The notes under the pieces were generated by a model. That model was not told the DNA's origin and made no database searches. It was given only the letters and a program-made list of their open reading frames with translations. DNA of 64,000 bases from Haloferax marinum. GTDB taxonomy: Archaea > Halobacteriota > Halobacteria > Halobacteriales > Haloferacaceae. Below are positions 8,492-50,302 of the stretch, piece after piece (the first letter of the stretch is position 1; the number at the start of each line of letters is the position of its first letter). The DNA lies in NCBI RefSeq assembly GCF_009674625.1, contig NZ_WKJQ01000001.1, forward strand, positions 2,046,001-2,110,000. The letters are read 5' to 3'. The position numbers were made by a program, and so were the translations under genes.

Positions 8492-8503
8492 GGTGTCTCT
8501 CCT

Positions 8504-8857
8504 GTGGCCGAGCGATTCTTTGGGATAGGACGCGTAGCATGTGGTGTGATTCCCACCGACAGGCACGGCAACTCCCATCTCTCGTTCGACGAGGAGGTGT
8601 TTTACGAGGCACTCGCCGAGTTCGGCGGCACTCCCGGAGAGCGCCGCGTCGTCGCCCGACAGGCCCGCGACCTCGCTGACTCGGGGCAAGCAGAGGCAGA
8701 CCGGGGTGCGGCGCTCACAGCAGACGAGATAATCCGAAACCTTCGCGATGCACCAGAGGGCGGCCCTGCAACGCGATGGAACTGGTGGCTCGGAGCGCTC
8801 GAAGCAGCCTACGGAAGCTACCGCGAGTTCCAGGTTCGTCGTATCCCCGAAACCTGA
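8504..8857 (+). CDS. Conserved-looking hypothetical protein
   Basis: The reading frame opens with GTG at 8504 (117 residues), 12 bp after the metalloprotease stop. A shorter start, GTG at 8546 (MIPTDRHGNSHLSFDEE, 103 residues), looks more natural because the first 14 residues are not haloarchaeal in composition. The rest is acidic and coherent, with FYEALAEFGGTPGERRVVARQARDLA and a Trp-rich TRWNWWLGALEAAYGSYREF. There is no signal peptide, membrane segment or recognised domain. Function unknown. Confidence 0.6.
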   Translation: MAERFFGIGRVACGVIPTDRHGNSHLSFDEEVFYEALAEFGGTPGERRVVARQARDLADSGQAEADRGAALTADEIIRNLRDAPEGGPATRWNWWLGALEAAYGSYREFQVRRIPET

Positions 8858-8921
8858 CCCTGCCGACAGTCGCTGTTCTGCCCGCCTCACGAAGGCCGTG
8901 AAGTGGGCTCTTTGTTTTCTC

Positions 8922-9218
8922 TCACTCCCGACTGCCGAGCGTCGCGAGCGCATCGTCGAGGGCGTCGCGTGCCGCTTCGACGTGTTCGTCGGCGTCGGCG
9001 TCTTCGGTCTCGTCGACGTGTTCGAGAAGGTGTTCGACGTGTCCGAGGCGAGTCCGTACCACGTCGTCCGGAGGGAGTGGGCCGGACACGAGGTCGGTAG
9101 CGACGGCCTCCGCTTCGCCGAGCCATCTGCTGGCATCTTCTCGGACAGGGAGTGTCGCCGTCGCAGCGAGGTGTTCGTAGAGAGTCTCGACGAGCGACCG
9201 GAGGTCAGACGTTGCCAT
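8922..9218 (-). CDS. Small haloarchaeal helical protein
   Basis: The start is set at the ATG at 9218-9216 (MATSDLRSLVETLYEHLAATATLPV), giving 98 residues. The longer frame upstream has a composition unlike the rest and would reach the start of the opposite-strand hydrolase gene. The protein is strongly acidic and helical, with ASRWLGEAEAVATDLV and LGHVEHLLEHVDETEDADADEHV, consistent with a helical bundle. It reads divergently from the beta-CASP hydrolase gene 86 bp away. Catalytic motifs are absent and the function is unknown. Confidence 0.7.
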   Translation of the reverse strand: MATSDLRSLVETLYEHLAATATLPVREDASRWLGEAEAVATDLVSGPLPPDDVVRTRLGHVEHLLEHVDETEDADADEHVEAARDALDDALATLGSRE

Positions 9219-9304
9219 GGTCACGGGATGGTTCTGTGGCCGGAAAAACTGCCGTGCCGCCGAGACCGACGGGCAAAAGCCCCTCCAGTCGGTACGAACC
9301 AGCA

Positions 9305-10537
9305 ATGAACCTCCAGTTCCTCGGCGGGGCCGGGGAAGTCGGACGCAGCGCGATACTCGTCAACGACTCGCTGCTCCTCGACTACGGGATGCTGACCGGG
9401 AACCCCCCACAGTTCCCCGTCGGGTCCGTCGACCCCGACGCAGTCGTCGTCTCCCACGGCCACCTCGACCACGTCGGGACAGTCCCCGCTCTCCTCTCCG
9501 GTTCCGAGTGGCCGGCAGTCCACTGGACGCCGCCGACCTACGAACTCGCACTGACGCTCGCACGAGACACACTCAAACTCCACGGTGGGACGTACGACTG
9601 TCCGTTTACGGAGACCCACATCAGGCGGATGACCCAACAGTCCGAACCGCACGACTACGGGGAGACGTTCGAGGCCGCCGGACACGAGGTCACGTTCTAC
9701 AACGCCGGCCACATCCCCGGAAGCGCCCACGTCCTCGTCGACGACGGTGAGACGCGACTGCTCTACACCGCCGACTTCCACACAGACGACCAGCGGTTAG
9801 TTAGCGGGACCACCGGCCGGCCCAACGCGGACGTCGTCATCTGTGAGTCCACCTACTCCGACGTCGAACACGAGGACCGGTCGACCGTCGAAGAACGATT
9901 CGTCGAGTCCGTTCGGACGACTATCTGGCAGGGTGGCACCGTCGTCGTCCCCGCGTTCGCAATCGGCCGAACACAGGAGCTACTGATGGTGCTCGACGCC
10001 CACGACATCGACTGCTACGTGGACGGCATGGGCACACGCGTTCTCGAGATGCTCCGAAACCACCCCGAGTACGTCCGAGACCCGACGGCGCTCAAGCGGG
10101 CGAAGTCGAACGCGAGAATCGTCTCGGGGCGTGACGGCCAACGGCGACGCATCGCCCGGCAAAACACCGTCATCGTCACGACGAGCGGGATGCTCTCGGG
10201 CGGTCCGGCGATGACTTACATCCCCGAGATTCGGCGGGACCCGACGAACAAAATCTGTCTCACCGGCTATCAGGTCGAAGGAACGCCGGGTCGGGAACTC
10301 GTCGAACGTGGCCGGTGCGAACTCAACGGCGGTGTCGTCCCCGTCGCCGCGCGCGCCGAGATGTACGACTTCTCCGCTCACGCAGACAAACACGGCCTCC
10401 GTTCGTTCCTCGCAGCGTATCGAGAGACGCCCGTCTTCGTCAACCACGGCGACCGTTGTGCAGCGTTTGCTGAAGAGCTCCGAGCGGACGGATACGAAGC
10501 GACAGCGCCCGAGGTCGGTGCCGTCGTCGAGGTCTGA
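9305..10537 (+). CDS. Beta-CASP metallo-beta-lactamase-fold RNA-processing nuclease
   Basis: The start ATG at 9305 gives 410 residues and places MNLQFLGGAGEVGRS at the N-terminus as in CPSF-type proteins. Motif 2 HGHLDH is at 51-56. YTADFH follows near 158-163, then the beta-CASP block with PAFAIGRTQELL, TSGMLSGGPAMTYIP and the C-terminal FSAHADKHGL. It matches archaeal CPSF2-like or RNase J-like enzymes that cut or trim RNA using two zinc ions. The N-terminal KH domains of aCPSF1 are absent, so it is the short, KH-less type. It acts in the cytoplasm; endonuclease versus exonuclease activity cannot be decided from the sequence. Confidence 0.85.
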   Translation: MNLQFLGGAGEVGRSAILVNDSLLLDYGMLTGNPPQFPVGSVDPDAVVVSHGHLDHVGTVPALLSGSEWPAVHWTPPTYELALTLARDTLKLHGGTYDCPFTETHIRRMTQQSEPHDYGETFEAAGHEVTFYNAGHIPGSAHVLVDDGETRLLYTADFHTDDQRLVSGTTGRPNADVVICESTYSDVEHEDRSTVEERFVESVRTTIWQGGTVVVPAFAIGRTQELLMVLDAHDIDCYVDGMGTRVLEMLRNHPEYVRDPTALKRAKSNARIVSGRDGQRRRIARQNTVIVTTSGMLSGGPAMTYIPEIRRDPTNKICLTGYQVEGTPGRELVERGRCELNGGVVPVAARAEMYDFSAHADKHGLRSFLAAYRETPVFVNHGDRCAAFAEELRADGYEATAPEVGAVVEV

Positions 10538-10574
10538 GGCGCACTCCTCCGTCCGAAGAATCAGTACTCTTCGC

Positions 10575-10624
10575 TCCGCGTCTTCGTCTGGCGCGTCTAT
10601 TCCGCGTCTTCGTCTGGCACGTCT
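10575..10624 (+). repeat. Two-copy 26-bp direct repeat
   Basis: TCCGCGTCTTCGTCTGGC occurs at 10575-10592 and again at 10601-10618, followed both times by [A/G]CGTCT. The period is 26 bp. It lies just downstream of the beta-CASP gene, outside any supported gene. Confidence 0.7.
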
Positions 10625-10737
10625 CGCATCGACCGACTCGCCGCGACACACGCCGAGACGCGGAGTCGCGTTCGCTGTGGGTGGAAGCGCTTGAGTACGG
10701 CCAAGGGCCCTCCTGATGGCGACTTTGAGTCCATACT

Positions 10738-10753
10738 TTTAGGTGGCCCTAAA
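10738..10753. promoter_or_regulatory. Palindrome resembling a DtxR/SirR metal-regulator box
   Basis: TTTAGG at 10738-10743 and CCTAAA at 10748-10753 form an exact inverted repeat around TGGC. Haloarchaeal DtxR-family iron regulators recognise TTAGGy...CCTAA-type sites, so this may be an operator. The nearest downstream gene start is 310 bp away, which weakens the assignment. Confidence 0.35.
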
Positions 10754-11063
10754 CAAGCATAGGCGTTCCGGTCGGAATCGCTCGACGAGAATGCCTGGAT
10801 GTGGTCTCGTCTGGTCGGTCGAAGACGGCCACACGACCCCTCGACCCGTCACACCTCCTGTTCGGTGACTGTTCGTTACTGCCGATTTTCATTCTCTCAC
10901 TGCCGTCTAGGCTGTGGCTAATGTTGTCACCCATTCTATAACTATGACCACTCACGGCGTCTGTTCTGTCAACCTTCCAAAATCACCTGAAACCACAAAA
11001 AATCAAATAAAACGACAATCGCCGTGACCGCCCGAATCGACCGCCCTACTGCCCGCACACCCG

Positions 11064-12290
11064 ATGGTTCCAATCCGCCTCATCGTCATCGTCTCGCTCC
11101 TCGTTCTTCCAGTGATGGCGAGTGCAACCGTCGCGTTCTCTCCTGCGGCGGTTACCTCGTCTGCGAGCTTCGACAGTGGTGTGCACCTCTCAGATGAGGA
11201 ACTCGCGTCTGAAGTGACAGAGACACCTGTCGGTCCGGAGTCCGGAATCTACGTGACTCCGACGACGGACGCTGTAGATAGGCCGCCGCTGAAGTCAGAA
11301 CCTGTGTGGTCAGACTCCGACGGCGACGGTCTCGACGACCGGCTAGAATCGTCGGTCGGAACTGACGCATTTACCACCGATACCGACGGTGACGGCCTCG
11401 ACGACTGGGACGAAGTGGTCAGATACCCAACCGACCCACTCAACCCCGATACAGACGGCGATGGCTTCTCCGACAGCATCGAGTACCGACTCGGACTCTC
11501 TCCAACCATCTCGGACGTGACCGACTCTCCAGACACAGACGGCGACGGCCTCTCCGACAGTGTCGAACGTCGAATCGGGACCGACCCGACAGTCCAAGAC
11601 ACCGACGGCGACAACCTCGGCGATGGCGTCGAAGTGTACGGGTCACCGCAGCAGTTCCCCGACGCGAACCCTCTCCGGAAAGACCTCTACTTCGAAGTCG
11701 ACGCGTACTACACCGCCACGATAAACTGGACTGCGCTGAACAACACTGCCGCGTTCTTCGCGTCTGCACCCGTCGAAAACCCAGATGGTTCGACCGGGTT
11801 CGCGGTCCACTTCGTCGTCGACGAGACGGATTTGACGGCACTCCGGGTAGCCAACGTGAGCCATCCCGACAGGGTCGTCGCGGACTTCGACCGAGCGGGC
11901 CGTGGCTATCAGTACATCTTCGTCGCTGAGTCCGTCTTCATCGAGGACCGTCAGGTCCGTGCTTCAGCCAACATGGGTCGAATCGCCATCGACGGCCCCG
12001 ACCAGACCGACCGACTCTACGTCCACGAAATCGGTCACTTGCTCGGTGTCCACGGGAGCGACAGTCCTGGCGTCGACTCCCACGCGTTGTCGATAGCGGA
12101 GTATCCGAGCATCATGTCCTACGAGTATCTCAACTCGAATCACCCGATTCAGATGGCTGCGGGGACCGAGTCCGCGGAGTCGAACGACGACTGGGACGAC
12201 ATCAGACGACGGTTCACCCGGTGGGTGGATACGAGCGAACTTGACCCTCCCGGCCACCGAGGGCAGGAAATAGCTGACGACGGTCGCTAA
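11064..12290 (+). CDS. Secreted metalloprotease with calcium-binding thrombospondin type 3-like repeats
   Basis: The 408-residue protein begins with a Sec-type signal (IRLIVIVSLLVLPVMASATVAFS). About residues 80-195 contain five Asp-rich repeats of the form DxDGDGLxD, each followed by an acidic or aromatic segment, as in calcium-binding thrombospondin type 3 modules. The C-terminal half carries HEIGHLLGVHG beginning at His 321 and a Met-turn SIMSYE (Met 351), the layout of metzincin zinc peptidases. No C-terminal membrane anchor is seen, so it is probably released or held by calcium. Substrate unknown. Confidence 0.82.
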   Translation: MVPIRLIVIVSLLVLPVMASATVAFSPAAVTSSASFDSGVHLSDEELASEVTETPVGPESGIYVTPTTDAVDRPPLKSEPVWSDSDGDGLDDRLESSVGTDAFTTDTDGDGLDDWDEVVRYPTDPLNPDTDGDGFSDSIEYRLGLSPTISDVTDSPDTDGDGLSDSVERRIGTDPTVQDTDGDNLGDGVEVYGSPQQFPDANPLRKDLYFEVDAYYTATINWTALNNTAAFFASAPVENPDGSTGFAVHFVVDETDLTALRVANVSHPDRVVADFDRAGRGYQYIFVAESVFIEDRQVRASANMGRIAIDGPDQTDRLYVHEIGHLLGVHGSDSPGVDSHALSIAEYPSIMSYEYLNSNHPIQMAAGTESAESNDDWDDIRRRFTRWVDTSELDPPGHRGQEIADDGR

Positions 12291-12314
12291 TCGTTAGCCG
12301 GTCGTCGTTAGTCG

Positions 12315-12707
12315 CTAGTCGTTCGTCGAATCTCCTTCGAGGCGAGTCCGGCGCCGGTCGAACTCGTCGTCGTCGATGTCGCCTCGGGCGTAGGCCCGCC
12401 GGAGTTCTTCGAGTGCGTCGTCACCGCTTCCACCACTGTTCAGCGCGCGGAAGAGCCAGATACCGCCCCCGACGAGGACGGTGAGGACGAGTAGTTGACC
12501 GAAGAGACCCATCCCCCACATCCACCACGGGCTGGTCCCGCCGGTGCCGCCGTGCATCCACGTGTCGTGCATCCATCCGCCGCCCCACCCCATCGGGCCG
12601 CCACCGAAGACGCCCGACATCCCGAGGAGTGCGGGGAAGACGAACAGTGCCGCGAGCGCGAGCAGTACGATACCGATGAGTCGTGTCGAGTCGCGTATCG
12701 TCGTCAT
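12315..12707 (-). CDS. SHOCT-domain membrane protein
   Basis: The start is the ATG at 12707-12705 (MTTIRDSTRLIG), giving 130 residues. Two membrane segments (about 11-33 and 62-83) flank a Gly/Trp/Met-rich, His-containing loop (GGGPMGWGGGWMHDTWMHGG). The C-terminus is a SHOCT domain (LEELRRAYARGDIDDDEFDRRR), a short helical motif that usually mediates oligomerisation. The Met/His-rich loop could contact metal, but that is speculation. It converges with the secreted metalloprotease gene. Confidence 0.8.
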   Translation of the reverse strand: MTTIRDSTRLIGIVLLALAALFVFPALLGMSGVFGGGPMGWGGGWMHDTWMHGGTGGTSPWWMWGMGLFGQLLVLTVLVGGGIWLFRALNSGGSGDDALEELRRAYARGDIDDDEFDRRRTRLEGDSTND

Positions 12708-12946
12708 AGGTAGAATCACGGACGGCACTCCGCCGTCCACACATCGACATACGCCTGCAAGGTTTACGTCTCTTTTCGTTCAGCCAACCGTGTTATCTCT
12801 CAGTTCCTACTTTCGAATCCAAGGAAACCGAGTTCAAGAATTTTGGAATCGAGTGTCTCATCCCTACCCGTGCTGACCATTCGCGTCGCCGACGACCACG
12901 AGAGTCGTGACTCGACGAGCGGTCCAAGAGGACCGTTGTGCGTCAG

Positions 12947-13234
12947 TCACGACCCGTCACTGCTGTGTCGTAAGCCGTACAGGGAGTAGAGGACAGAGAG
13001 CATCCCGACCGCGACGACACCTGTCTGGATGGTTCCAGCCTGAAAGAGCGACAACCCGACGACTTCGAAGAGGACACCCTCTATGACCGCACCGAAACTG
13101 ATGAACAGAAACCCGATTGCGACGAAGAGCATCGGCTTGCTATCGTACTCGGTGTATCCCTTGTACGCCTGGTAGGCGATGAGGAACCCGAGTGCCATCG
13201 TGACGACTTTCGCGACGACGAGTTCAATGTGCAC
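12947..13234 (-). CDS. Small three-TM membrane protein (DUF7521-like)
   Basis: The 95-residue protein has three predicted membrane helices (about 6-22, 35-58, 66-85) and a short polar tail. It starts 2 bp after the stop of the winged-helix regulator gene and is surely cotranscribed with it. Pairing of an HTH regulator with this kind of short membrane protein recurs in haloarchaea, and the family name is from memory. A role in envelope or redox sensing is possible, but no residue supports it. Confidence 0.7.
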   Translation of the reverse strand: MHIELVVAKVVTMALGFLIAYQAYKGYTEYDSKPMLFVAIGFLFISFGAVIEGVLFEVVGLSLFQAGTIQTGVVAVGMLSVLYSLYGLRHSSDGS

Positions 13235-13236
13235 GC

Positions 13237-13587
13237 TTACTTCCTCCTGATATCGTCCCAGAGACGTGTGAACCGCTCCGCCGCCGACTCGTCGTAGTCC
13301 AACTCGATTCGGAGTTCGCCGTCGGCCACGACCATCTCGAGGTGTGTGAGCTTCGCCTCGTAGACGCTGTGATGACTCCCGTCAGCGACGAGTTCCGTCT
13401 GTTCTTCGAGGAGGCGATGGTCCACCATCTCGTCCAGTCGCCGGTATATCGTCGACTGGGCGACACCGAACTCGTCGCTGAGTTCTCTGACCGACTGCGG
13501 AGTCCGACTCGTGGCGACGAGAATCGACCGAACGTACTCGTCCCCGAGCAGTTCGAGCAGTTCGTCCGGGTCTGAAGCACCTGACAC
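13237..13587 (-). CDS. Winged helix-turn-helix transcriptional regulator
   Basis: A start at GTG 13587-13585 (MSGASDPDELLELL) gives 116 residues. The longer TTG-started frame to 13653 would overlap the promoter, because TTTAAGTA (TATA) lies at about 13618-13625. The domain is an ArsR/TrmB-like winged helix: LLGDEYVRSILVATSRTPQSVRELSDEFGVAQSTIYRRLDEM is helix-turn-helix with a recognition helix VAQSTIYRRL. The tail has HLEMVVADGELRIEL and an amphipathic C-terminal helix for dimerisation. The gene is followed by the three-TM gene and read divergently from the copper-protein gene, a likely target. Confidence 0.8.
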   Translation of the reverse strand: MSGASDPDELLELLGDEYVRSILVATSRTPQSVRELSDEFGVAQSTIYRRLDEMVDHRLLEEQTELVADGSHHSVYEAKLTHLEMVVADGELRIELDYDESAAERFTRLWDDIRRK

Positions 13588-13712
13588 ACGTTTCTCACTC
13601 GGAGGTGCCTCGTATTGGTACTTAAACCCTCGCCGGATTTGCCGACTCGGCAAAACAGCAGTCCTTCATTACCACGTCCAGTTCGAACTACCATCTGTCG
13701 GGTGACCTACCC

Positions 13713-14459
13713 ATGAACGATTCACTAACTCGGCGGAACGTCCTGAAGGCAACTGGAGGTCTCGCTGTGCTTGGTCTCGCAGGGTGTACGGGCAATGCGG
13801 CTCCAGAAGCCGGAAACGAGGTGTCGCACGAAGATTCCCACGACGACGAGACGGCGGCCGAACAGGCCACCGAGAGCGACGGTGGTCACGGACACGCTGG
13901 GGGAACGATTGGTGACCCCGCCGAACACGCGACGGTCACCATGCTGACCGAAGACGACAGCTACCACTTCCACCCTCACGTCGTCCACGTGAAAGAAGGC
14001 GGAACGGTCACGTTCGAACTCGAGAGCGGGACGCACACGGCGACTGCGTACCACCCGGACAACGACGCACCACGCCGCGTCCCAGAGGGAACCGACGCCT
14101 GGGACAGTGGAGTGCTCTCTGAGAGCGGTGCGACGTACGAAGTCACGTTCGACGAAGCCGGTGTCTACGACTACCACTGTGTTCCCCACGAGTCGGTCGG
14201 GATGATCGGGAGCGTCGTCGTCGGCGAACCACCACTCGATGGACCGGGAATGTCGCCTCCGTCGGACGACCTCCTCGAGGGCGTCCACGGTAAGGTGACC
14301 GAACTGAACGAGATGGTCGAACACGGCCTCGACGACGGTGGTCACGACGAGGGCGGTCACGAAGAGGGCGGTCACGAAGAGGGCGGTCACGATGACAGTG
14401 GTCAGGATGGCGGCCACGACGACGGCGGTCACGACGACGGCGACGACCACACCGAGTAG
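13713..14459 (+). CDS. Halocyanin-like blue-copper lipoprotein with His-rich tail
   Basis: The 248-residue precursor has a Tat signal (RRNVLKATGG) followed by a lipobox (LGLAGCTG, Cys about 29), so it is a membrane-anchored extracellular protein. The cupredoxin domain (about 65-175) carries a type 1 copper set: His 108 in SGTHTATAYH, Cys 156, His 159 and Met 164 in CVPHESVGM. Halocyanins carry electrons between membrane complexes. After the domain a helical linker ends in a tail of GGHxxGGHxx repeats (about 208-246, ten His), which could bind extra Cu, Ni or Zn. The tail is encoded by near-identical 15-bp tandem units. Confidence 0.85.
   Translation: MNDSLTRRNVLKATGGLAVLGLAGCTGNAAPEAGNEVSHEDSHDDETAAEQATESDGGHGHAGGTIGDPAEHATVTMLTEDDSYHFHPHVVHVKEGGTVTFELESGTHTATAYHPDNDAPRRVPEGTDAWDSGVLSESGATYEVTFDEAGVYDYHCVPHESVGMIGSVVVGEPPLDGPGMSPPSDDLLEGVHGKVTELNEMVEHGLDDGGHDEGGHEEGGHEEGGHDDSGQDGGHDDGGHDDGDDHTE
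14338..14450 (+). repeat. Coding tandem repeats of the His-rich tail
   Basis: Units based on GGTCACGAAGAGGGC repeat about seven times, most exactly at about 14354-14388, with Asp/Glu codon variation. They encode the Gly-Gly-His-acidic tail of the copper protein. Confidence 0.75.
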
Positions 14460-14573
14460 CTCTGTTCGGTTCAGCGAACCGACCTCATTTTCGTGTCTCG
14501 TTCGACCAGAACCTGGTCGCTGAACTCCATCCCCGTCCGTTCCATACTTGACCCCCGGTTGCGTTTCACCGGT

Positions 14574-40749: not shown

Positions 40750-42045
40750 CTACTCGTAATCGACGTAGGTCGGTTCGTCCAAGTCGCCTGGGAAGTCGTC
40801 GACCGGTGCGGTCGTCTGGTCGCCAGACTCCATGTCTTTGATGGTCACTTCGCCGTTCTCTAAGTCACGTTCGCCGACGATGACGACGGTGCCGGCGTTG
40901 ATGGAGTCGGCGTAGGACATCTGTGCGCCGAAACTCCGACCGGAGACGTCGACTTCGACGACGTTACCTGCGGCGCGGAGGTCACGGGCGATTCGTGAGG
41001 CGACGGTTCGGGTGTCGCCCACGGTGAGGATGTAGTACTCCGTCGTGAGTTCTTCTTCGGGCCAGACGCCGGCACGCTGACAGAGCAGTTGGAGTGGGGC
41101 GGCACCGATGCCGACACCGACCGCAGGCGTGGGTTGGCCACCGAACGATTCGATGAGGTCGTCGTATCGGCCGCCGCCGAACGCCGCACGAGAGACCTCG
41201 CCAGTCGAGTCGAAGCACTCGAAGACGACGCCCGTGTAGTAGTCGAGGCCGCGAGCGGTCGTCAGCGAGACGTGACAGAACTCGCCCGCACCGAAGTCCT
41301 CGGCCGCCGCGAGGACGTTCTGGAGGTTCTCGACTGCCGCCTCGACGTTCTCGCCGCCGAACTCTGCGATTTCGTCGAGGTCGCCACGTTCGAGGAGGTC
41401 GGCGAACTCGTCGGCTTGGTCGTACGAGAGACCCGCATCCGAGAGCAGTCCGAGATACTCTTCGCGTTCGACTTTCTCGGATTTGTCGACGGCGCGGACG
41501 GCGTCTCGAACGTCTACGTCGGCGTCGAACGACCGGAGGAGGCCGCCGAGGATGTCGCGGTGGGAGACGCGGAACTCGAAGTCGTCGGCGGTGAGGCCGA
41601 GGTCGGTCAGGGCGTCGGCCGCGAAGGCGAGAATCTCGGCGTCTGCCTCGGGTTCGGACGACCCGAAGATGTCTGCGTTCGTCTGGTAGAACTCGCGGAA
41701 CCGGCCCTGTTGGACCTGTTCGTAGCGCCAGAACGGGCGCGTCGAGACCCACTTGATTGGCTTCGATAGCGCCTGCTGTTTGGCGACGACCATCCGGGCG
41801 ACGGTCGGCGTCAACTCGGGGTTGAGAGTGACGTTGCGGCCGCCTTTGTCTTCGAACGCGTACAGTTCTTCGACGATTTCCTCGCCGGACTTGTCGACGT
41901 ACATCTGCGTCCGTTCGAGGTACGGCGTCCCGATTTCGCGGAACCCGTAGCGAGCGGCGGTCGTCTCGACGGTGTCGAACACCTTGCGTCGAGCCGACAT
42001 CTCCTCGGGGTAGAAGTCACGAAATCCCTTGAGTCGGTCGTACAT
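40750..42045 (-). CDS. hisS: Histidyl-tRNA synthetase
   Basis: The start is the ATG at 42045-42043 (MYDRLKGFRDFYPEEMSARRKVF), giving 431 residues. The upstream in-frame stretch to 42201 is not family-like. Class II motif 2 WRYEQVQQGRFREFYQTNADIFG lies near residues 108-130. The HisRS-specific LDYYTGVVFE is near 270 and GGGRYDDLIESFGG is motif 3-like. The anticodon domain has YAGTVVIVGERDLENG. It charges tRNA-His. A TATA-like stretch lies about 68 bp upstream of the ATG. Confidence 0.94.
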   Translation of the reverse strand: MYDRLKGFRDFYPEEMSARRKVFDTVETTAARYGFREIGTPYLERTQMYVDKSGEEIVEELYAFEDKGGRNVTLNPELTPTVARMVVAKQQALSKPIKWVSTRPFWRYEQVQQGRFREFYQTNADIFGSSEPEADAEILAFAADALTDLGLTADDFEFRVSHRDILGGLLRSFDADVDVRDAVRAVDKSEKVEREEYLGLLSDAGLSYDQADEFADLLERGDLDEIAEFGGENVEAAVENLQNVLAAAEDFGAGEFCHVSLTTARGLDYYTGVVFECFDSTGEVSRAAFGGGRYDDLIESFGGQPTPAVGVGIGAAPLQLLCQRAGVWPEEELTTEYYILTVGDTRTVASRIARDLRAAGNVVEVDVSGRSFGAQMSYADSINAGTVVIVGERDLENGEVTIKDMESGDQTTAPVDDFPGDLDEPTYVDYE

Positions 42046-42237
42046 GCCCAGTCGTTGGCGAAGGCTCCGCTTGAAACCTGTTGTTCGAGAGCGGTGGGGC
42101 GCGCGCTTCGTATTTATGTAGATACTATGCGGCGGTGTACTGCGCCGTTTCCGGACTTCTAGAGCACGACATCGAGGGTGAACGCCGACCGGTACTGTCA
42201 TTTGAATGTATTACAAGTGTGGTGATAGTACACGCAA

Positions 42238-42408
42238 ATGACGTCTTCTTGCTGTGATTCCGAACTACCACGCCATCTCGAATCTATGCTCACGAGTGAC
42301 GCGTACGACTGGACCACCAGACGACCCGCGGAGACCGAAGACTACGAAGGACACACCACCTTCGATTCGAACACTACGCCCCGGTTGAAGGAGCGACAGA
42401 GACGATGA
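42238..42408 (+). CDS. Small first gene of the helicase-methylase operon
   Basis: The 56-residue protein begins MTSSCCDSELPRHLESMLTS and ends in PRLKERQRR. It has a Cys pair near the start, an acidic/aromatic middle (DAYDWTTRRPAETEDYEGHT) and a basic end. Its TGA overlaps the ATG of the helicase (ATGA), so the two are translationally coupled. No family is recognised. As the leading gene of the candidate restriction operon it could be a regulator or an antitoxin-like partner, but this is inference. Confidence 0.55.
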   Translation: MTSSCCDSELPRHLESMLTSDAYDWTTRRPAETEDYEGHTTFDSNTTPRLKERQRR

Positions 42409-45400
42409 AGGACATCGGAAATCGGGTCATCGACAACAACGCTGGACTGTTAGGGGACGACAGAGAAGGAAGCGTCCTCGACGTGTTCGAACACTATCTC
42501 ACGAAGGCAATCGAAGCCGACCGTGAGAACAGTTTCCGAATGGACATCGGGACCGGATTCCTCTTTTTCTCCGGGTTCGAAGCGATATCCGAAACGTTTC
42601 AGGAGCTACTCGAAACAGAGACCGTGAGCCAAATCGACGAACTGGAGTGGGGGACCGAAGCCCCCATCAGAGTCGTGATGGGTCCCGAAACGTCGAACCG
42701 GACGAAGTCGATTCTGCTCGCTCTCGTCACCGACCAAGTCATCGAATACGACGACGAGGCAATCGACGTGCTCCAGACGTTCATCAGAGACGGATTGATC
42801 GACTTTCGAGTCATCACTGAGCGGACCTTCCACCCCAAGCTGTACAGCTTCTACCTCCGTTCTGAGGTCCCAGATGACGTCTGGGCTGGTTCGGCTAACT
42901 TCAGTAGAAGTGGGCTTCAGAACAACATCGAACTCTCGGTGCAGATGCAGACCGGAAACCAAGACCGAGAGCTATTCCGAGAGTGGTTCGACAAACTGTG
43001 GGAACACGGTGAAGAGGACCTCGACGTGTTAGAAGTCCTCGAAACCGTCCAACAGAGTGACTACGTCTACCAGCCACCGTCTGTCTTCTTCGCGAAACTC
43101 GTTCGGTACCTCGACCGGGACTACTTGCTGGACAGTACGACTTCGGTCGATGGCTCTCCGCTTCTTGAGTACCAAAATTTGACGTACAACATCGTGATGG
43201 AGCGACTCCAGCGCTACGGGGGATACATCCTCTCGAACAGTGTTGGAACTGGCAAGACGTACGTTGCCGCACAGACTGCAGCGACCTATCAACGGCGGTC
43301 GCCAAATCAAGAGATCTTGGTTGTCGCGCCGTCGAGTGTGACCGAAGAGTGGAAATCGGTGTTCGAAGAGTTCGGCGTCGACGCGGACGCGGAGTTCCTC
43401 TCGATGGGGATGCTGCAGAAACAGCCACTCGAAGAGGCAACAGATGGTGACCGTATCTTCGATTACCGGGACTACACCGACCGATTTAGCTTGATTATCG
43501 TCGACGAGGCACACAACTTCCGGAACGACAGTAACCGCCGGAACAATCTGGAGGACATCGTTCGACAGAACCACGATGCCGACGTGTTGCTGACGAGCGC
43601 GACACCAATCAACATCAGTCCCGAAGACCTCTTTTCGTTGATCGACCTGTTCTACCGCGGACCGAGAGTCCAGCAGTTCGAGAAAGCGGGCTTGAAATCG
43701 CATTACGAGCGCACCCGACAGAAACTGAAGCAGTTAGACAACTACGACGACCTCAGCAGTGGCCTCATTCAGGACATCAAGCAGATAGAAAACGAGTTGT
43801 CCATCAAGATTACGTGGCGTATCATCCAAACGGAGTTCGAAGACGACCTTCGCCAGTTGGCGGGAGACGACGTCGAGTACGAGGACCCGGAAATCACAGA
43901 AGAAGAGTACGACTACCCCGCTCAGTACCAGAACGAAGTCTTCGACGAAATCGTTCCCTTCCTCGACCAACTCAATTACGAGCCTTCGAAGCTATGGGAT
44001 GGGCAGGGATACCAGGACTTCGACAACCTGATTTTCCGGCACAAGTGGCGGTTGTATAAGCGACTGGAGAGCAGTCTCAAAGCGTTTCACGACAGCATCG
44101 ACAATCTTCACAAGCGGTTTATTCTGTACTACGAGGCCATCGAACGGGACACGGCATTCGAAGAGAACGACGTTGCTGCGCTGTCTACCAGTATCGACCC
44201 GAACGAAGCGGCAAACGCGACGGACCTCGAACGACTCGGCACTGTCGTTTCCACCTACCGCTCTCTCGACCCGGACCTCCAACAGACCGTCCTCCGGAAC
44301 TTACAGGCAGATATCGATCTAATCGAGCAGATGTTAGACCGAATCACGTCTGCGTTTGGCCGCGCGTCAACTATCCCCTACCCCGGAGACCGAAAGGTCA
44401 CGAGACTTCGGTCGATTATCGAAGCGAAACTCTCTGAGGACAAACCGCTGGTCATCTTCTCGCAGTACAGTGACACAGTCGAATACCTGTACCAGAGTCT
44501 CTCTGCAGAGTTCGACGGCGTGCGGCGTATTCACGGAGGGTTATCAACTGACAAAGAGGAATTCGTCTCTACGTTCAACCGTGGCGAGTTCGACGTAATC
44601 ATCACGACAGACATGTTGGCAGAGGGGGTCAACATTCCGCGTGCAGACGTCATCGTGAACTTCGACCTCCCGTACAACCCGGTCACACTCATCCAGCGGA
44701 CTGGGCGGGCGTTACGGATTACGAACCCGAAGAAAGTCGAGGTTCACAACTTCCGTCCTGCGGGGTCTATCGACCGCGAACTCGAACTGTACGAGAAGTT
44801 GGACGCACGACTCGACACCATCCTCGACATCGTCGGGTTAGACTTCATCGTCTGGTTAATGGACGAGAAGAAAATCGAGCAGTTGCACAAAGACGAACGC
44901 GAAGAGTATCTGGAAAGCTTAGAAGAGTACAACGACACGATGGCTTCCTCGGACCCGAGTGAGATTGCCCCGGAGCAATCCCCACCGGAGGAGACACGGA
45001 CGGACCGGGTTTTACGGCGAGCCATCGACACGTACAACTTGTCTCCGGACGACATCTCGGTGGTCTCAGCGTCCATAAATCGGCCCATATACACGACTCT
45101 TGAATCCGCCGGTGGACAGGACCAACCGACCGCTGACATCGACGCCGAAGTTCGTGAAACGCTCTTGTCAGGGTTTGCCATACTCGGTGAGACTGGCGGC
45201 GACCCGTCTGTCTGGACGCCGCTTCACCGGAGTGTGAAAGCAGGACCGAAAGGTGTGGGACTCACAGCGAGCGATACGGACACTATCGAAACGATTCGAA
45301 AAGAACGCCAAGAACAGTATAACCGAGAACGAGTGACTGCTGGTCAGTTAGGTCGTGCCGCGTCGCAACTGATCGACCTCGTATCGGACGTGCTAGGTCT

Positions 45401-45665
45401 GGTTTCGGATTCGGAGATGAAAGAGACACTCAGTGCTGTCCGAGAACGGTTAGAAGCAGACGCGTACACCGTTCCACAGCGCAATACTCTGGAGGACGCG
45501 CTGTCATCAATTCAAAAAGAGGACTACGGGTGGATGTCGAACCCGGACACCGAGATACGGAACTCATCGGAATGGCAAACAGTTATTCAATTATCGCAGA
45601 AAGGCACGAGTACTTCCGGAGAGAGCGAAGTAAAAGCCGTCATCAAATACCACACCAATGACTGA
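42405..45665 (+). CDS. PLD-nuclease/SNF2-type helicase of a candidate restriction system
   Basis: This 1086-residue protein has an N-terminal phospholipase D-like domain (1-200) with HPKLYSF at about 143-149 and GSANFSRSG at 162-170, as in PLD-type nucleases fused to helicases. A superfamily 2 helicase follows: Walker A SVGTGKT (279-285), DEAH at 367-370, motif III LTSATPIN (about 396-403). The C-lobe has VIFSQYSDTVEYLYQSL and QRTGRALRI (motif VI). The C-terminal 300 residues are helical. It overlaps the 56-residue ORF (ATGA) and the methyltransferase (8 bp). Helicase-driven DNA tracking with nucleolytic cutting is the likely role. Codons are less GC-biased than in the flanking genes. Confidence 0.85.
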   Translation: MKDIGNRVIDNNAGLLGDDREGSVLDVFEHYLTKAIEADRENSFRMDIGTGFLFFSGFEAISETFQELLETETVSQIDELEWGTEAPIRVVMGPETSNRTKSILLALVTDQVIEYDDEAIDVLQTFIRDGLIDFRVITERTFHPKLYSFYLRSEVPDDVWAGSANFSRSGLQNNIELSVQMQTGNQDRELFREWFDKLWEHGEEDLDVLEVLETVQQSDYVYQPPSVFFAKLVRYLDRDYLLDSTTSVDGSPLLEYQNLTYNIVMERLQRYGGYILSNSVGTGKTYVAAQTAATYQRRSPNQEILVVAPSSVTEEWKSVFEEFGVDADAEFLSMGMLQKQPLEEATDGDRIFDYRDYTDRFSLIIVDEAHNFRNDSNRRNNLEDIVRQNHDADVLLTSATPINISPEDLFSLIDLFYRGPRVQQFEKAGLKSHYERTRQKLKQLDNYDDLSSGLIQDIKQIENELSIKITWRIIQTEFEDDLRQLAGDDVEYEDPEITEEEYDYPAQYQNEVFDEIVPFLDQLNYEPSKLWDGQGYQDFDNLIFRHKWRLYKRLESSLKAFHDSIDNLHKRFILYYEAIERDTAFEENDVAALSTSIDPNEAANATDLERLGTVVSTYRSLDPDLQQTVLRNLQADIDLIEQMLDRITSAFGRASTIPYPGDRKVTRLRSIIEAKLSEDKPLVIFSQYSDTVEYLYQSLSAEFDGVRRIHGGLSTDKEEFVSTFNRGEFDVIITTDMLAEGVNIPRADVIVNFDLPYNPVTLIQRTGRALRITNPKKVEVHNFRPAGSIDRELELYEKLDARLDTILDIVGLDFIVWLMDEKKIEQLHKDEREEYLESLEEYNDTMASSDPSEIAPEQSPPEETRTDRVLRRAIDTYNLSPDDISVVSASINRPIYTTLESAGGQDQPTADIDAEVRETLLSGFAILGETGGDPSVWTPLHRSVKAGPKGVGLTASDTDTIETIRKERQEQYNRERVTAGQLGRAASQLIDLVSDVLGLVSDSEMKETLSAVRERLEADAYTVPQRNTLEDALSSIQKEDYGWMSNPDTEIRNSSEWQTVIQLSQKGTSTSGESEVKAVIKYHTND

Positions 45666-48600
45666 CGCTGCAGACTACCCGACTACGCTAGACGCCACCC
45701 CCACGCACAGAACTGACGGTGGCTACGGATACGAGTACCTCGTCGACGCCGCGTACTTCGAAGAGCCAACGTCGGATACGGTCACGTACGACCCCGGCCA
45801 CGACGTCACGTATCAGTTCAGTATCGAGGGGTCGGTGCGGATTGCATACTTCGAGTTCCCGATGTCGGCCGTCCCTCGGGACACGCCGAAGAAGATTACC
45901 CAGGAGTTGAAACGACGGACTCGACTGCAGTACTTCTGGTTCTTCGACCCGGAGACCAATCGAGTGCAGGTGTTCCGTGCGTCTCGGGGGAACTTCCAGT
46001 TCATCTACAACCCCGACCACCACACGTCGACGACGGCAGAGAGCAAGCGCGATAAGTTACGCCAGGTCCCGGACGATATCAACGCACTCTTCGATTACAA
46101 GGACGTCGTCGACCGTTTCTACCGAGAGCTGTGGGACCATCGCTCCGACCTCGCGAGTTCTCTCAGGACCAAGAGTGGTCACACGCTGAGCAAGAGAGAA
46201 GAACTCCTCTCTGCACAGCGTATCATCGACCGTCTGGTCTTCCTCTACTTCCTCGTCGAACGCGGCGTCGTCGTTCCGGTGAACGACTCGAAAGAGATGG
46301 TTCCTGGGAAGACAGACCGTGTGTTCGACACGCTCGTGGGCGAACACGACGACTTCTGGGCGCTCCTTCGGACCATCTTCTTCGACCGATTGAACTCCAA
46401 AACCACTGACGACATCAAATTCACCGGGTCGTACTGGCTCCACGTCCCGTATCTCAACGGTGGACTGTTCCAACCCGAGGACCTCGAAACCACGGCGGGC
46501 GAACTCGTCTCGGAAGACGAAGAGCTAGTCGTCGAGGACTTCGATTGGGAGGCCCTCGTCAGCGAACTCAACGAGTACAACTGGCTTCTGGATGGACTCG
46601 AGGGGACGGACGAAGACGAAGCCGACACCGTTGGAAACCTGACCCCTGCCGTCCTCGGCTACATCTACGAGAAGTTCGTCATCTCGGTGAGTAAAGTCGG
46701 TGACGACGTTCGTCTGAGTGACCTGGACGCGTCGGAACGAAACGACCTGTTGTCGGAAGGAAACAGCGAAGTCGGCGCGTACTACACGGGCGAGGACATA
46801 ACCGACTTCAAGGCCCGTCGGGCGTTGTGGGAAGGGTTGCTGGAGAAGTTCGACGAAGACCTCGGTAGTGGAGCGGTACCCAACGAACTGAACGTCACCG
46901 ACCTGTACAGACCGGGCAACGAGCAGTCTGGGCGAATCGAGTCGGACCAAAAAGACGGGTTCGACGTCCTCTACGAGGAGTACAAGACGTCCGAGGAGGT
47001 TCTGGAGTACGTCGATTCGAAGTTGACGGAACTGAAGGTGTGCGACCCCGCCGTCGGGAGCGGTTCGTTCGCGCTCGCGGTGGCGAACACGCTGTTCGAG
47101 TGGCGCTCGATGTGCCGACCCGACACCGACGAGTACGTCCTCAGACGCCAGATAATCGCACAGAACATCTTCGGTGTCGACATCCTGGAGGGAGCGACAG
47201 AGATCTGCAAGTTGCGTCTGTGGCTGTGGCTGATTAGTGCGACACCGGTAGACACGACCGAAGGCGCACCCGTCGACGAGCGAGACGAGATTCCGCCGCT
47301 CCCCGACATCACGTTCAACATCCGAACAGGGAACAGTCTCCTCGGGTTCACCGACACGGCTGCTGTGACCGGGAAAGAGCAGTACACGCTCGATTCTCTG
47401 ACGATGAAGGACCGACTCAGAACGTATGGGCGAGACGTCGGTGACTACAGGGAATCTGCCGACCCCGAAAAACAGACGAAGCGCGAACTCGAACGCCGGC
47501 ACGACGAACTGAAATCGGAGCTCGACGAGTGGTACGCAGGTGCACAGAGCGACTCGAACAACAACCGCCTCACTATCGCCGACCACGTCGACGACGTCGG
47601 GTCGGCGTGGGACAGTCTGAACGCCGCGCCGCAGTCTTCGACGACGCTCAGTGTCAAAATCCCGGATGGGATTCCCGACTCTATCGACGAGTATCTGGTG
47701 CAGAACGGCTTCACCACGTACAAATACAAAGCTCGGTTGGATAGTCCGACACTCGAGAAAGACGACGTCGAGAAGATTTTCGACCACCTCCGACAGCACT
47801 TTTCGGACCCCGAGGATTGGAGCGTCCTCGTCGAACGAGAGTACGCTGGGCAGGACTTCCGCGACGACAAACTGGACGCGTGTCACTGGCCGCTCGAATT
47901 CCCGCAAGTGTTCGTGGATAACGGCGGGTTCGACGTCGTCATCAGCAACCCACCGTACGGTGCGTCTCTCAGTCCTGAAGAAGAGCCACTGCTGAAGACC
48001 GAGACCAACTACGAGTGTCAGGGGACGAACGACTCGTGTGAGTGGTTCTACGAACGGGCGTTGGACCTCGTCCACGACCGGGGTGTCATCTCCTACATCG
48101 TCAGCAAGAGTATCGCCTTCTACAGTTCGTGGTCCGACATCCGCGGACGACTGCTCGAGGAGACCGAGTTCAAACACATCTTCGACGTCGGCCTTGGATT
48201 CGTCGGCGTGAATCTGGAGACCATCGCCATGGTCAACACGCTCGGCGGTGACGGCCGGCGAAGCACTCCGACGGTGCACCGAAGCAAAGACCTCCGAAGT
48301 ACGACTGCGAACCAACCGGTCCACCTGGGATGGGTCGACCAAGCGTTCATGATGGATTCGAAGACCATCATCTTCCGACCCGTGACTGACGACCAGAGCG
48401 ACGTCTTGGAGCGCCTGCTCTCACACGGACGGCGTCTCGGTGACGTGATGTCCACCGACGACACGACGAGGCAGTTGTACATCCCGGACAGTACGAAGAA
48501 GAACCTCGACGACGGCGACGACCACTACATCAACAAGAACCCGTGGGTCCAGGAGTTCTACTTGGAGGACATCTGGCACAAAGACCTCGGCGACTACCGC

Positions 48601-49278
48601 GACTCAGTCGACGAATACGCCGTTCCGCGCGTCATGCTGAAAGTCCTCCGAGGGACCCGACTCCGTGCGTGGGTCGACCCAGAGGGCGAAGTGGTCGGGA
48701 CGGAAAAGCTCGTCAACGTTCCACTCGAAGAGAGCAGTCCGGAAGAGATTGCGTTCGTGTACGCTGCACTGAACCACCCATGTGCGTCTTTCTACCTCCA
48801 GAAAGCGATTTTCTCGGAGACGACAGAGACCGCACGGGTGATGGACGGTCAGTACTCGAAGCCGATTCCGATTCCCGACGTCTCAGAAGCTGTCGAAACG
48901 GCTGTTGCACACCTCGCGTGGACGCTCACGATGGCGAGACAACTGGACCACGACTCGAACCGCGACCTCACGGACGACGTCGACACCATCCACTCCGGCC
49001 TCGACGCGATTCTCGGTGCACTGTACGTGGGTACGTCGTCCGAAACGGTCGACCGCTGGTGTGACACGGTGGAGACGACCGACCCTGATACCGAACGCGT
49101 CCACGAACTGTTTGGAGCGTTCTACACCGAGCGGTTCGCCACTCGGAACGGGCGTCCAGACCAGTACTGGAACGAGATTCAGTCGCTCGTCGAAGAGACT
49201 GTCGAGACGGTCTCACAGTGGGACACCGACGAGATTACGACATCGCGCGAGATGGACGTCGTCGAAGCGGTTCTCTGA
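45658..49278 (+). CDS. Eco57I/PglX-like N6-adenine DNA methyltransferase
   Basis: The 1206-residue protein starts 8 bp inside the helicase gene. After an N-terminal domain of unknown type (1-230) comes a helical region. The methyltransferase core has the SAM motif CDPAVGSGSFALAVA (Asp at about 462) and the catalytic NPPYG at about 764-768, the pattern of N6-adenine enzymes in the Eco57I family. A specificity-like region follows (LGDVMSTDDTTRQLYIP, SKPIPIPD). The size and order resemble type IIG enzymes and PglX. The partner helicase makes a restriction complex likely. Whether it also cuts is open: no nuclease motif was identified in the N-terminus. Confidence 0.87.
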   Translation: MTDAADYPTTLDATPTHRTDGGYGYEYLVDAAYFEEPTSDTVTYDPGHDVTYQFSIEGSVRIAYFEFPMSAVPRDTPKKITQELKRRTRLQYFWFFDPETNRVQVFRASRGNFQFIYNPDHHTSTTAESKRDKLRQVPDDINALFDYKDVVDRFYRELWDHRSDLASSLRTKSGHTLSKREELLSAQRIIDRLVFLYFLVERGVVVPVNDSKEMVPGKTDRVFDTLVGEHDDFWALLRTIFFDRLNSKTTDDIKFTGSYWLHVPYLNGGLFQPEDLETTAGELVSEDEELVVEDFDWEALVSELNEYNWLLDGLEGTDEDEADTVGNLTPAVLGYIYEKFVISVSKVGDDVRLSDLDASERNDLLSEGNSEVGAYYTGEDITDFKARRALWEGLLEKFDEDLGSGAVPNELNVTDLYRPGNEQSGRIESDQKDGFDVLYEEYKTSEEVLEYVDSKLTELKVCDPAVGSGSFALAVANTLFEWRSMCRPDTDEYVLRRQIIAQNIFGVDILEGATEICKLRLWLWLISATPVDTTEGAPVDERDEIPPLPDITFNIRTGNSLLGFTDTAAVTGKEQYTLDSLTMKDRLRTYGRDVGDYRESADPEKQTKRELERRHDELKSELDEWYAGAQSDSNNNRLTIADHVDDVGSAWDSLNAAPQSSTTLSVKIPDGIPDSIDEYLVQNGFTTYKYKARLDSPTLEKDDVEKIFDHLRQHFSDPEDWSVLVEREYAGQDFRDDKLDACHWPLEFPQVFVDNGGFDVVISNPPYGASLSPEEEPLLKTETNYECQGTNDSCEWFYERALDLVHDRGVISYIVSKSIAFYSSWSDIRGRLLEETEFKHIFDVGLGFVGVNLETIAMVNTLGGDGRRSTPTVHRSKDLRSTTANQPVHLGWVDQAFMMDSKTIIFRPVTDDQSDVLERLLSHGRRLGDVMSTDDTTRQLYIPDSTKKNLDDGDDHYINKNPWVQEFYLEDIWHKDLGDYRDSVDEYAVPRVMLKVLRGTRLRAWVDPEGEVVGTEKLVNVPLEESSPEEIAFVYAALNHPCASFYLQKAIFSETTETARVMDGQYSKPIPIPDVSEAVETAVAHLAWTLTMARQLDHDSNRDLTDDVDTIHSGLDAILGALYVGTSSETVDRWCDTVETTDPDTERVHELFGAFYTERFATRNGRPDQYWNEIQSLVEETVETVSQWDTDEITTSREMDVVEAVL

Positions 49279-49295
49279 TTCGAGTCGGTGACTGG

Positions 49296-50201
49296 TTACC
49301 CGACGACCGAAACGAGCGTCCCCACGTCACCGATTGCGATGAGTGTGACGCCGGCGACGGCGAGAAACGCCGCGACGAGGCGGGTCCCGAACTGCGATTC
49401 ACGGAGAATGACACCACCGAGAACGACGGCCACGACGGCCTGCGTGTTGATGATCGGCGACCCGATACTGGCCGGAATCAGCGAGAACGCCACCGAGGTG
49501 ACGTGTTCGCTCCCGGCGACGACGAGGCCCATGACGGCGAACCTCGGTAGGTGGCCCCGAACCGATTGCCAGTCGCGGACGGCGAGTGGGAGCAAGACGA
49601 GCGCCCCACCGACGAAGAGAATCGGAACCCACAGCGACGTCGGGATGGACAACTCTTGGAGGGAGACCCGTTTTCCGACGTCGCTGACGGCGTAACAGAT
49701 GGCGCTGGCGAGGGCAAACTGCGCCGGCCGAGAGTTCGCTGCCCGGCGAAGCGGGTCGAAGAGCTTTCCACCCTGGTAGTTGGTAACGTACACTGCCAAC
49801 GTCGCGACGGCAACACCGACGAGTTGGAGCGCAGTCAGGTGCTGTGAGAGCAGAACGATTTCGATGGGCAAGACGAATACGGGGACGAGTTTGTTTATCG
49901 GCGCGACGTACGACACGTCACCGCCGTCGAGGGCTTCGACGAAGAGGACGAACCCGAGGCCGATGAAGACGATGGTGATGAGGACGACACCGACGCCGAC
50001 GAGTCCGAGTTCGGAGAACGTTGGTATCGGCGCGGCGTCGAGCCTCGTCGCAGTGACGGGTGCGTACCACGTGACTGCGAACATGTTGATGACGACTGCG
50101 AGTTGCGCCGCGGAGTATCCCTGGAAGTAGCGTTTGAGGCCGAAGATGTAGACACCCCACCCGAGGGCAGCGAGAATGGCGAAGAGGATACCGGGGTCCA
50201 T
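49296..50201 (-). CDS. EamA/DMT-type transporter
   Basis: The start is the ATG at 50201-50199 (MDPGILFAILAALGWGVYIFGLKRYF), giving 301 residues. Ten hydrophobic segments in two EamA repeats, each opening with an aromatic/Gly pattern. The second half contains FALASAICYAVSDVGKRVSLQEL and IINTQAVVAVVLGGVILRES. The short N-terminus places the first helix at residue 4. It resembles drug/metabolite exporters; substrate unknown. Its stop is 17 bp from the stop of the methyltransferase gene, so it is convergent and outside that operon. Confidence 0.85.
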   Translation of the reverse strand: MDPGILFAILAALGWGVYIFGLKRYFQGYSAAQLAVVINMFAVTWYAPVTATRLDAAPIPTFSELGLVGVGVVLITIVFIGLGFVLFVEALDGGDVSYVAPINKLVPVFVLPIEIVLLSQHLTALQLVGVAVATLAVYVTNYQGGKLFDPLRRAANSRPAQFALASAICYAVSDVGKRVSLQELSIPTSLWVPILFVGGALVLLPLAVRDWQSVRGHLPRFAVMGLVVAGSEHVTSVAFSLIPASIGSPIINTQAVVAVVLGGVILRESQFGTRLVAAFLAVAGVTLIAIGDVGTLVSVVG

Positions 50202-50302
50202 AGTTCGTCTGGCACCTTCGGAGAAGAAAAGCGACGTGATGCACGCCCGCCGACTGGCGAGGTGCGAGTCGAACAACCGACGCTGTCGCCGTCGCGACCT
50301 GC

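What the first reader, a model, noticed from the sequence alone, without database searches (positions are those of the whole stretch)
42238..49278. Three-gene overlapping operon: small protein, PLD-helicase and Eco57I-like methylase, a minimal restriction system
The operon is tightly coupled: the 56-aa stop overlaps the helicase ATG (ATGA), and the methylase starts inside the helicase gene (8-bp overlap). The helicase joins a PLD-type nuclease-like domain (HPK 143-145, SAN 163-165) to SF2 motifs. The methylase has DPAVGSGSF and NPPYG. Named BREX and DISARM loci need PglZ, BrxC or DrmA/B, none of which flanks it, so it is a compact alternative. DNA cutting and defence are inferred.
Basis: partly seen in the sequence, partly recalled or inferred. 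Interest (0 to 1): 0.78.

Follow-up and report, generated by a model that had tools for sequence, protein, structure and literature searches.

The report
Two-gene helicase–methylase restriction system
A salt-loving archaeon carries a compact DNA-defence cassette in which one protein (a nuclease fused to a DNA motor) probably destroys unmarked foreign DNA and its partner (a methylase) marks the cell's own DNA and chooses the target; the same pair recurs widely, the target-choosing end of the methylase is swapped while the cutting protein stays the same, and the cutting protein is the part that gets lost.

Summary
They form a ~7.2-kb insert between hisS and an EamA gene that are adjacent in the 14 other genomes of the genus. 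Three results point to restriction–modification: (1) HELs 92–98% identical are paired with MTs whose C-terminal region has been exchanged (25–45% identity), so target choice lies in MT; (2) in the close family HEL is deleted in 4–5 loci with MT intact, never the reverse; (3) a published m6A assignment (GCAAT, Natrinema versiforme) maps, by my locus-tag inference, to a paired MT. Catalytic residues are invariant. Best reading: an ATP-dependent two-subunit R–M system, Type III-like in logic, with a PLD–Snf2 restriction subunit and a PglX-like modification/recognition subunit. The 'third gene' is weak and not a core part. PADLOC already lists the helicase family (HKD+Snf2). No cleavage or defence has been shown.

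The parts
42104..49290 (.). Inserted cassette between hisS (40750-42201, -) and an EamA transporter gene (49296-50276, -); ends approximate
   Evidence: The two flanking genes are 57-136 bp apart in all 14 other genomes of the genus and about 7.25 kb apart here; GC 0.565 against 0.618/0.627 in the flanks
42238..42408 (+). 56-aa ORF, possible remnant of a small VapB/RHH-like regulator
   Evidence: ATGA overlap with HEL; positional homologues in L100, L102, L103, L105 and, ending one codon earlier, L104; L103 copy weakly hits DUF7557 (7e-4) and VAPB_antitox (0.012), both below cut-off; no coding signal in the window copy
42405..45665 (+). HEL: PLD-type nuclease fused to a Snf2/RapA-like SF2 ATPase (predicted restriction subunit)
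   Evidence: Pfam; PADLOC best hit HKD+Snf2 1.6e-39; family profile matches SauUSI 7clg across PLD and RecA1, 3.6e-18; Ka/Ks 0.03-0.09 between loci
42831..42899 (+). PLD catalytic signature: H143-x-K145 ... G162-S163-x-N165
   Evidence: Invariant in 51/52 HELs and in alignments A1 and A4
43161..44774 (+). SF2 ATPase core: GTGKT 281-285, DEAH 367-370, SATP 398-401, QRTGRALR 764-771
   Evidence: Invariant columns; ResIII, SNF2-rel_dom and Helicase_C above Pfam cut-offs
45658..49278 (+). MT: gamma-order N6-adenine DNA methyltransferase, PglX-like (modification and recognition subunit)
   Evidence: Eco57I 1.7e-25; nearest folds PglX/BrxX and MmeI; profile hits CamA, M.BseCI, PglX/BrxX
47044..47070 (+). 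MTase motif I DPAVGSGSF (463-471)
   Evidence: D463, A465, G467, G469, F471 invariant
47947..47961 (+). MTase motif IV NPPYG (764-768)
   Evidence: N764, P765, P766 invariant
48295..49275 (+). C-terminal target-recognition region of MT (about 880-1206)
   Evidence: Region exchanged between otherwise near-identical operons

Best explanation
This is a two-gene, ATP-dependent restriction–modification system carried as a lone mobile cassette. MT (PglX-like) recognises an asymmetric 5-7-bp site through its C-terminal domain and methylates adenine there. HEL binds MT, or MT on DNA, through MT's conserved N-terminal two thirds. When the site is unmethylated, its Snf2-type motor is switched on and moves on DNA, and pairs of PLD domains, which need to dimerise to form an active site, cut the DNA, as in SauUSI and Type III/ISP enzymes. 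Shown here: gene pairing, conserved catalytic residues, co-evolution of HEL with MT's N-terminal part, exchange of MT's C-terminal part without change in HEL, one-sided loss of HEL, insertion into a clean site. Inferred: physical complex, motif, methylation by this MT, translocation, cleavage, defence.
For: Pairing in 49/51 HEL loci, gene order varying, also on a plasmid of the methanogen Methanothermococcus okinawensis and on IMG/VR contigs. Recognition-region swaps: L100 and L102 share 95.2% DNA over 5,964 bp (HEL 98% aa, MT N-part 92%), then MT C-part 32%; independent cases, as HEL/MT-N/MT-C identity: L119/L127 94/85/45, L157/L160 92/85/29, L129/L159 92/83/45; all ten pairs with HEL about 90% or more show it. 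HEL vs MT-N distance matrices r=0.98, largest of 999 label shuffles 0.22. HEL decayed or deleted with MT intact in L105, L095, L096, L107 and probably L097; no intact HEL with broken MT in this subfamily. PLD and SF2 residues invariant; SauUSI match; SauUSI is an ATP-driven translocating PLD nuclease (PMC7913695). For the homologous pair on pNVE500 of Natrinema versiforme, methylation of GCAAT (71.4%) was assigned to FEJ81_20490 (PMC6696651), which by the tag offset seen for the other plasmid MTase (19855 to RS19870) is the paired MT RS20505.
Against: No methylation, cleavage or phage data for this locus, nor cleavage data for any HEL of the family that I could find. The GCAAT assignment is called putative by its authors (made by sequence comparison), and my locus-tag mapping is itself inferred. 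AlphaFold models are weak (mean pLDDT 57). One HEL (L135) has no MT within reach. Five one-sided losses are few (p about 0.02 on a length-only null), and a useful orphan MT would also be retained.
Confidence: 0.72

Rival explanations
1. HEL is a Type IV (modification-dependent) nuclease of the SauUSI kind, and MT is a neighbour that marks or exempts DNA; the two do not share a target.
For: Same PLD+SF2 domain order; SauUSI is the only solved relative matched across both domains.
Against: Near-constant pairing with an MT, r=0.98 co-evolution with MT's N-part, HEL lost rather than MT. A nuclease with its own target should not co-vary with a methylase core.
Confidence: 0.1
2. A BREX- or DISARM-like non-cleaving defence: methylation marks self, and the helicase/PLD protein blocks replication or entry without cutting.
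For: MT is closest to PglX; HEL is related to DrmD and BrxH helicases.
Against: No PglZ, BrxC, DrmA or DrmB recurs nearby; the PLD residues expected for cleavage are invariant.
Confidence: 0.1
3. MT is a self-contained Type IIG restriction enzyme and HEL is an accessory.
For: PADLOC best model for MT is Type IIG REase-MTase; an E83-L-K85 triplet occurs in the N-terminal part of the close relatives.
Against: No N-terminal column before residue 264 is invariant in the 22-member alignment; ELK lies in a predicted (low-confidence) helix and is lost in L107 and L109-L111; closest folds include the nuclease-free PglX.
Confidence: 0.04
4. The operon is a decaying or inactive remnant in this genome.
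For: The small ORF is degenerate and the p203 neighbour gene found in relatives is missing.
Against: Both large ORFs are full length, keep every catalytic residue, and HEL shows Ka/Ks 0.03-0.06 against relatives.
Confidence: 0.04

Closest known systems
PADLOC C3a139 'HKD+Snf2'
   Same: Best profile for HEL in the window and in four other HEL subfamilies tested
   Different: Only a helicase profile; which system model uses it, and whether anything was tested, I could not establish
Hma / DUF499-centred BREX-related Type-2 systems (PMC12839542)
   Same: HKD nuclease fused to Snf2 helicase plus N6-MTase, argued by its authors to work like R-M
   Different: DUF499 ATPase, the defining part, is absent from this genome; HmaA profile scores well below HKD+Snf2
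SauUSI (Type IV)
   Same: PLD nuclease followed by SF2 ATPase
   Different: SauUSI carries its own recognition domain, targets methylated DNA and has no MTase partner
Type III Mod/Res and Type ISP enzymes
   Same: Target choice in the methylase part, ATP-driven motor-nuclease that has none; two genes as in Type III
   Different: MT is gamma-order (motif I before NPPY) rather than Type III-like, nuclease is PLD rather than PD-(D/E)XK, and the activities are not fused as in ISP (from sequence and general knowledge)
BREX PglX/BrxX
   Same: Closest solved fold to MT, similar size
   Different: No PglZ or BrxC nearby
CglI / NgoAVII
   Same: PLD nuclease, helicase-like ATPase and MTase in one R-M system (PMC4267653)
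   Different: There PLD is fused to a B3 recognition domain and is separate from the helicase
DISARM DrmD-DrmMI
   Same: Helicase and MTase are distant homologues
   Different: No DrmA/DrmB; PLD is fused to the helicase instead of a separate DrmC

Membership tests
BREX | PglZ and BrxC beside the MTase | tested here: not met
   Flanks are hisS and EamA; not recurrent among 132 neighbours of relatives
DISARM | DrmA, DrmB, DrmC | tested here: not met
   None in the insert; not recurrent among neighbours
Hma / DUF499 BREX-related | DUF499 ATPase | tested here: not met
   No PF04465 match anywhere in the genome; a control genome rings
PADLOC HKD+Snf2 | HKD nuclease fused to Snf2 helicase | tested here: met
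   Best PADLOC hit, 1.6e-39; motifs invariant
Restriction-modification (general) | MTase plus candidate restriction subunit genetically linked | tested here: met
   49/51 loci
Restriction-modification (general) | Restriction subunit lost before the MTase, not the reverse | tested here: met
   4-5 losses of HEL with intact MT, 0 reverse in the close family; few events
Restriction-modification (general) | Cleavage of unmodified DNA | not testable with these tools
   Needs biochemistry or transformation assays
Type III R-M | Specificity only in the modification subunit | tested here: met
   MT C-terminal swaps with HEL unchanged; inferred from exchange, not measured
Type III R-M | Beta-type Mod and PD-(D/E)XK Res nuclease | tested here: not met
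   Motif I precedes NPPY in MT; HEL nuclease signature is PLD
Type IIG | Nuclease active site in the same chain as the MTase | tested here: inconclusive
   No conserved PD-(D/E)XK residues found in MT's N-terminal part; structure model weak there
Type IV SauUSI | Own recognition domain for modified bases, no MTase | tested here: not met
   MTase partner nearly always present; the function of the HEL C-terminal region is unknown

The most novel reading that the evidence does not exclude
The family is a separate, widespread class of ATP-dependent R–M system in archaea and bacteria, in which a PglX-like methylase supplies recognition for a PLD–Snf2 restriction subunit, so that swapping one domain re-targets both marking and cutting; some loci (MT-HEL-MT) would let one HEL serve two specificities.
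Probability: 0.5. Interest if true: 0.7.

Novelty: new variant of a known kind. Interest (0 to 1): 0.55.

Why it matters
If right, this would link some orphan methylases of Halobacteria to R–M systems that lost their cutter, give a simple two-protein system in which a PglX-like methylase directs a motor-nuclease (helpful for understanding how BREX and DISARM arose), and offer a system with exchangeable recognition that can be tested in a genetically tractable archaeon.

Tried and rejected
Motif transfer from the archaeal survey's HG5 (PglX-like, CTGGAG in Haloterrigena; PMC10609329): my orphan-MT genus g94 could not be named, and H. salifodinae BOL5-1 lists no CTGGAG, so kept only as a lead. 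Invertible methylase switch in loci with two opposed MTs: the inverted repeats are only 73-82% alike, i.e. homologous coding sequence. Type IIG reading through E83-L-K85: not conserved. PDB search with the PLD part of the window protein alone: no hit even at E=1; only the family profile reaches SauUSI. p203 as a core component: absent from the window genome and found in only 6 of 392 genomes, one of them weakly. Literature searches for the pair under several names found the DUF499 systems but no description of this two-gene form; the library is incomplete.

Full report
Observation. The three ORFs, both overlaps and all named motifs are in the sequence at the stated coordinates. The window is from a haloarchaeal genome of 3.48 Mb. 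HEL (1086 aa) has an N-terminal PLD-type region and a complete SF2/Snf2 core; MT (1206 aa) has Eco57I/N6-MTase motifs in the order motif I then NPPY. No NCBIfam equivalog reaches its cut-off for either. PADLOC's best models are HKD+Snf2 for HEL and Type IIG, DrmMI and PglX models for MT.

Genomic setting. In all 14 other genomes of the genus, hisS and the EamA gene are neighbours 57-136 bp apart; here about 7.25 kb separates them, filled by this operon alone. A conserved block of about 40 nt upstream of hisS is intact and the insert begins after it. Insert GC is 0.565 against about 0.62. There is no integrase or transposase in the insert. Elsewhere relatives sit on plasmids (Natronococcus occultus plasmid 2, Haladaptatus halobius, Natrinema versiforme pNVE500, Methanothermococcus okinawensis pMETOK01 of 14.9 kb), several near integrases.

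A family of paired genes. Close relatives (81-86% HEL, 70-83% MT) have the same order, and L102-L104 the same 8-bp overlap. More distant HELs fall into several subfamilies with different orders: MT before HEL (L118, L119, L157 types), convergent or separated by other genes (L120 type), or MT-HEL-MT (L115, L136, L139). An MT lies within 6 kb of HEL in 49 of 51 loci; one exception is a truncated contig (L117), the other is L135. The window clade, with Haladaptatus and Methanothermococcus, has support 1.0. IMG/VR contigs show HEL followed at once by an MT in many cases; whether these contigs are truly viral was not checked. Gene calls on fetched loci come from a simple codon-usage script of mine, so small genes may be missed.

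Not BREX, DISARM or Hma. Scanning 132 neighbours of about 50 loci, no PglZ, BrxC, DrmA, DrmB or DUF499 family is matched by two or more members; the lists were cut at 25 families, so a single occurrence cannot be excluded. DUF499 is absent from the whole source genome.

Catalysis. H143, K145, G162, S163, N165, N174 and E176 are invariant in 51 of 52 HELs; the exception (L151) is a DrmD-like helicase without the PLD region. Walker A, DEAH and the motifs of the second RecA domain are likewise conserved. The HEL profile matches SauUSI (7clg) across PLD and RecA1, and the fold search agrees, though on a weak model. The MT model's closest solved folds are PglX/BrxX and MmeI, again on a weak model. 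MT's N-terminal region has no conserved nuclease residues.

Where the specificity lies. Halorientalis persicus (L100) and Haloarchaeobius sp. FL176 (L102/L099) share 95.2% DNA identity over 5,964 bp covering HEL and most of MT; from about MT residue 830-880 the protein identity falls to about 32%. The same pattern appears independently in other subfamilies, and in all ten pairs with HEL about 90% or more identical the MT C-part is far below the N-part. HEL distances follow MT N-part distances (r=0.98, best of 999 shuffles 0.22). The plain inference is that MT's C-terminal region is the target-recognition domain, that HEL has no specificity of its own, and that HEL contacts MT's N-terminal part.

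Which part is costly. In the close family HEL is reduced to fragments in L105 (residues 1-145 and 998-1086), L095 (937-1086), L096 (1063-1085) and probably L097 (frame-broken remnant near a contig end), and is absent in L107, while MT is full length in all. The reverse was not seen. A further MT group at about 46-50% identity in Halopiger and in genus g94 has no HEL; its recognition region (901-1080) is 53-73% identical to the window's while most of the rest is 22-60%. Loss of the cutter with retention of the methylase is what R-M decay predicts.

Published methylation data. In N. versiforme BOL5-4, methylation of GCAAT (71.4% of sites) was assigned to FEJ81_20490 (PMC6696651). The record I could read carries RefSeq tags only; the other plasmid MTase of that table, 19855, corresponds to RS19870 (DUF1156 MTase of a DUF499 system), giving an offset of 15, so 20490 corresponds to RS20505, the MT paired with HEL RS20500. 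This is an inference on a putative assignment, for a distant relative of the window MT.

Small ORF. In L100, L102, L103 and L105 a 38-50-aa ORF ends in the same ATGA, and in L104 one codon earlier; L103's copy weakly resembles DUF7557/VapB antitoxins. The window copy has lost most of that pattern and has no coding signal. It may be a relic of an RHH-type regulator. A second accessory gene, p203, lies convergently downstream in L102-L105 and L107 but not here.

Verdict. A two-gene ATP-dependent R-M system is the best reading. The mechanism in detail (translocation, two-site cutting) is borrowed from SauUSI and Type III/ISP enzymes and is untested. Novelty is moderate: the parts and the helicase family are on record; the recurrent two-gene form and its domain-swapping behaviour were not found described in the literature searched.

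Noticed in passing
L151 (G000:C1:2275000-2294000), 7977-14572: The same genome has a DrmD-like helicase (PADLOC 1.2e-124) followed by a DrmMI-like MTase (1.5e-94) with no DrmA/B-sized genes beside them: a second helicase-MTase pair, without PLD.
   Followed up: partly
L161 (G000:C1:2602000-2621000), 8541-12056: An orphan 1171-aa MT of the L120 type (47% identity) without a HEL beside it in the source genome.
   Followed up: no
L103:14989-15600 (p203) and equivalents in L102, L104, L105, L107: A 203-aa protein without any Pfam or PADLOC match, convergent with close-family MTs even where HEL is lost; absent from the window genome and from L100, whose MT C-terminus is swapped.
   Followed up: partly
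L115, L136, L139: One HEL flanked by two different MTs, suggesting two specificities served by one restriction subunit.
   Followed up: partly
L134, L138, L140, L144, L145, L147 and others: A recurring 342-344-aa gene between or beside HEL and MT in the L120 type; PADLOC candidate PDC-S11 matches 10-11 of the scanned neighbours and may be this gene.
   Followed up: no
window:42046-42087: About 40 nt directly upstream of hisS are nearly identical in all 15 genomes of the genus (GTTGGCGAAGG..CGCTTGAAACCTGTTGTTC): a conserved promoter or leader element.
   Followed up: no
L286 and L285 (NZ_CP040331.1:240000-289000 and 345000-394000): Natrinema versiforme pNVE500 carries a DUF499/DUF1156/helicase (Hma-type) system as well as a HEL-MT pair, so the two kinds coexist.
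   Followed up: partly
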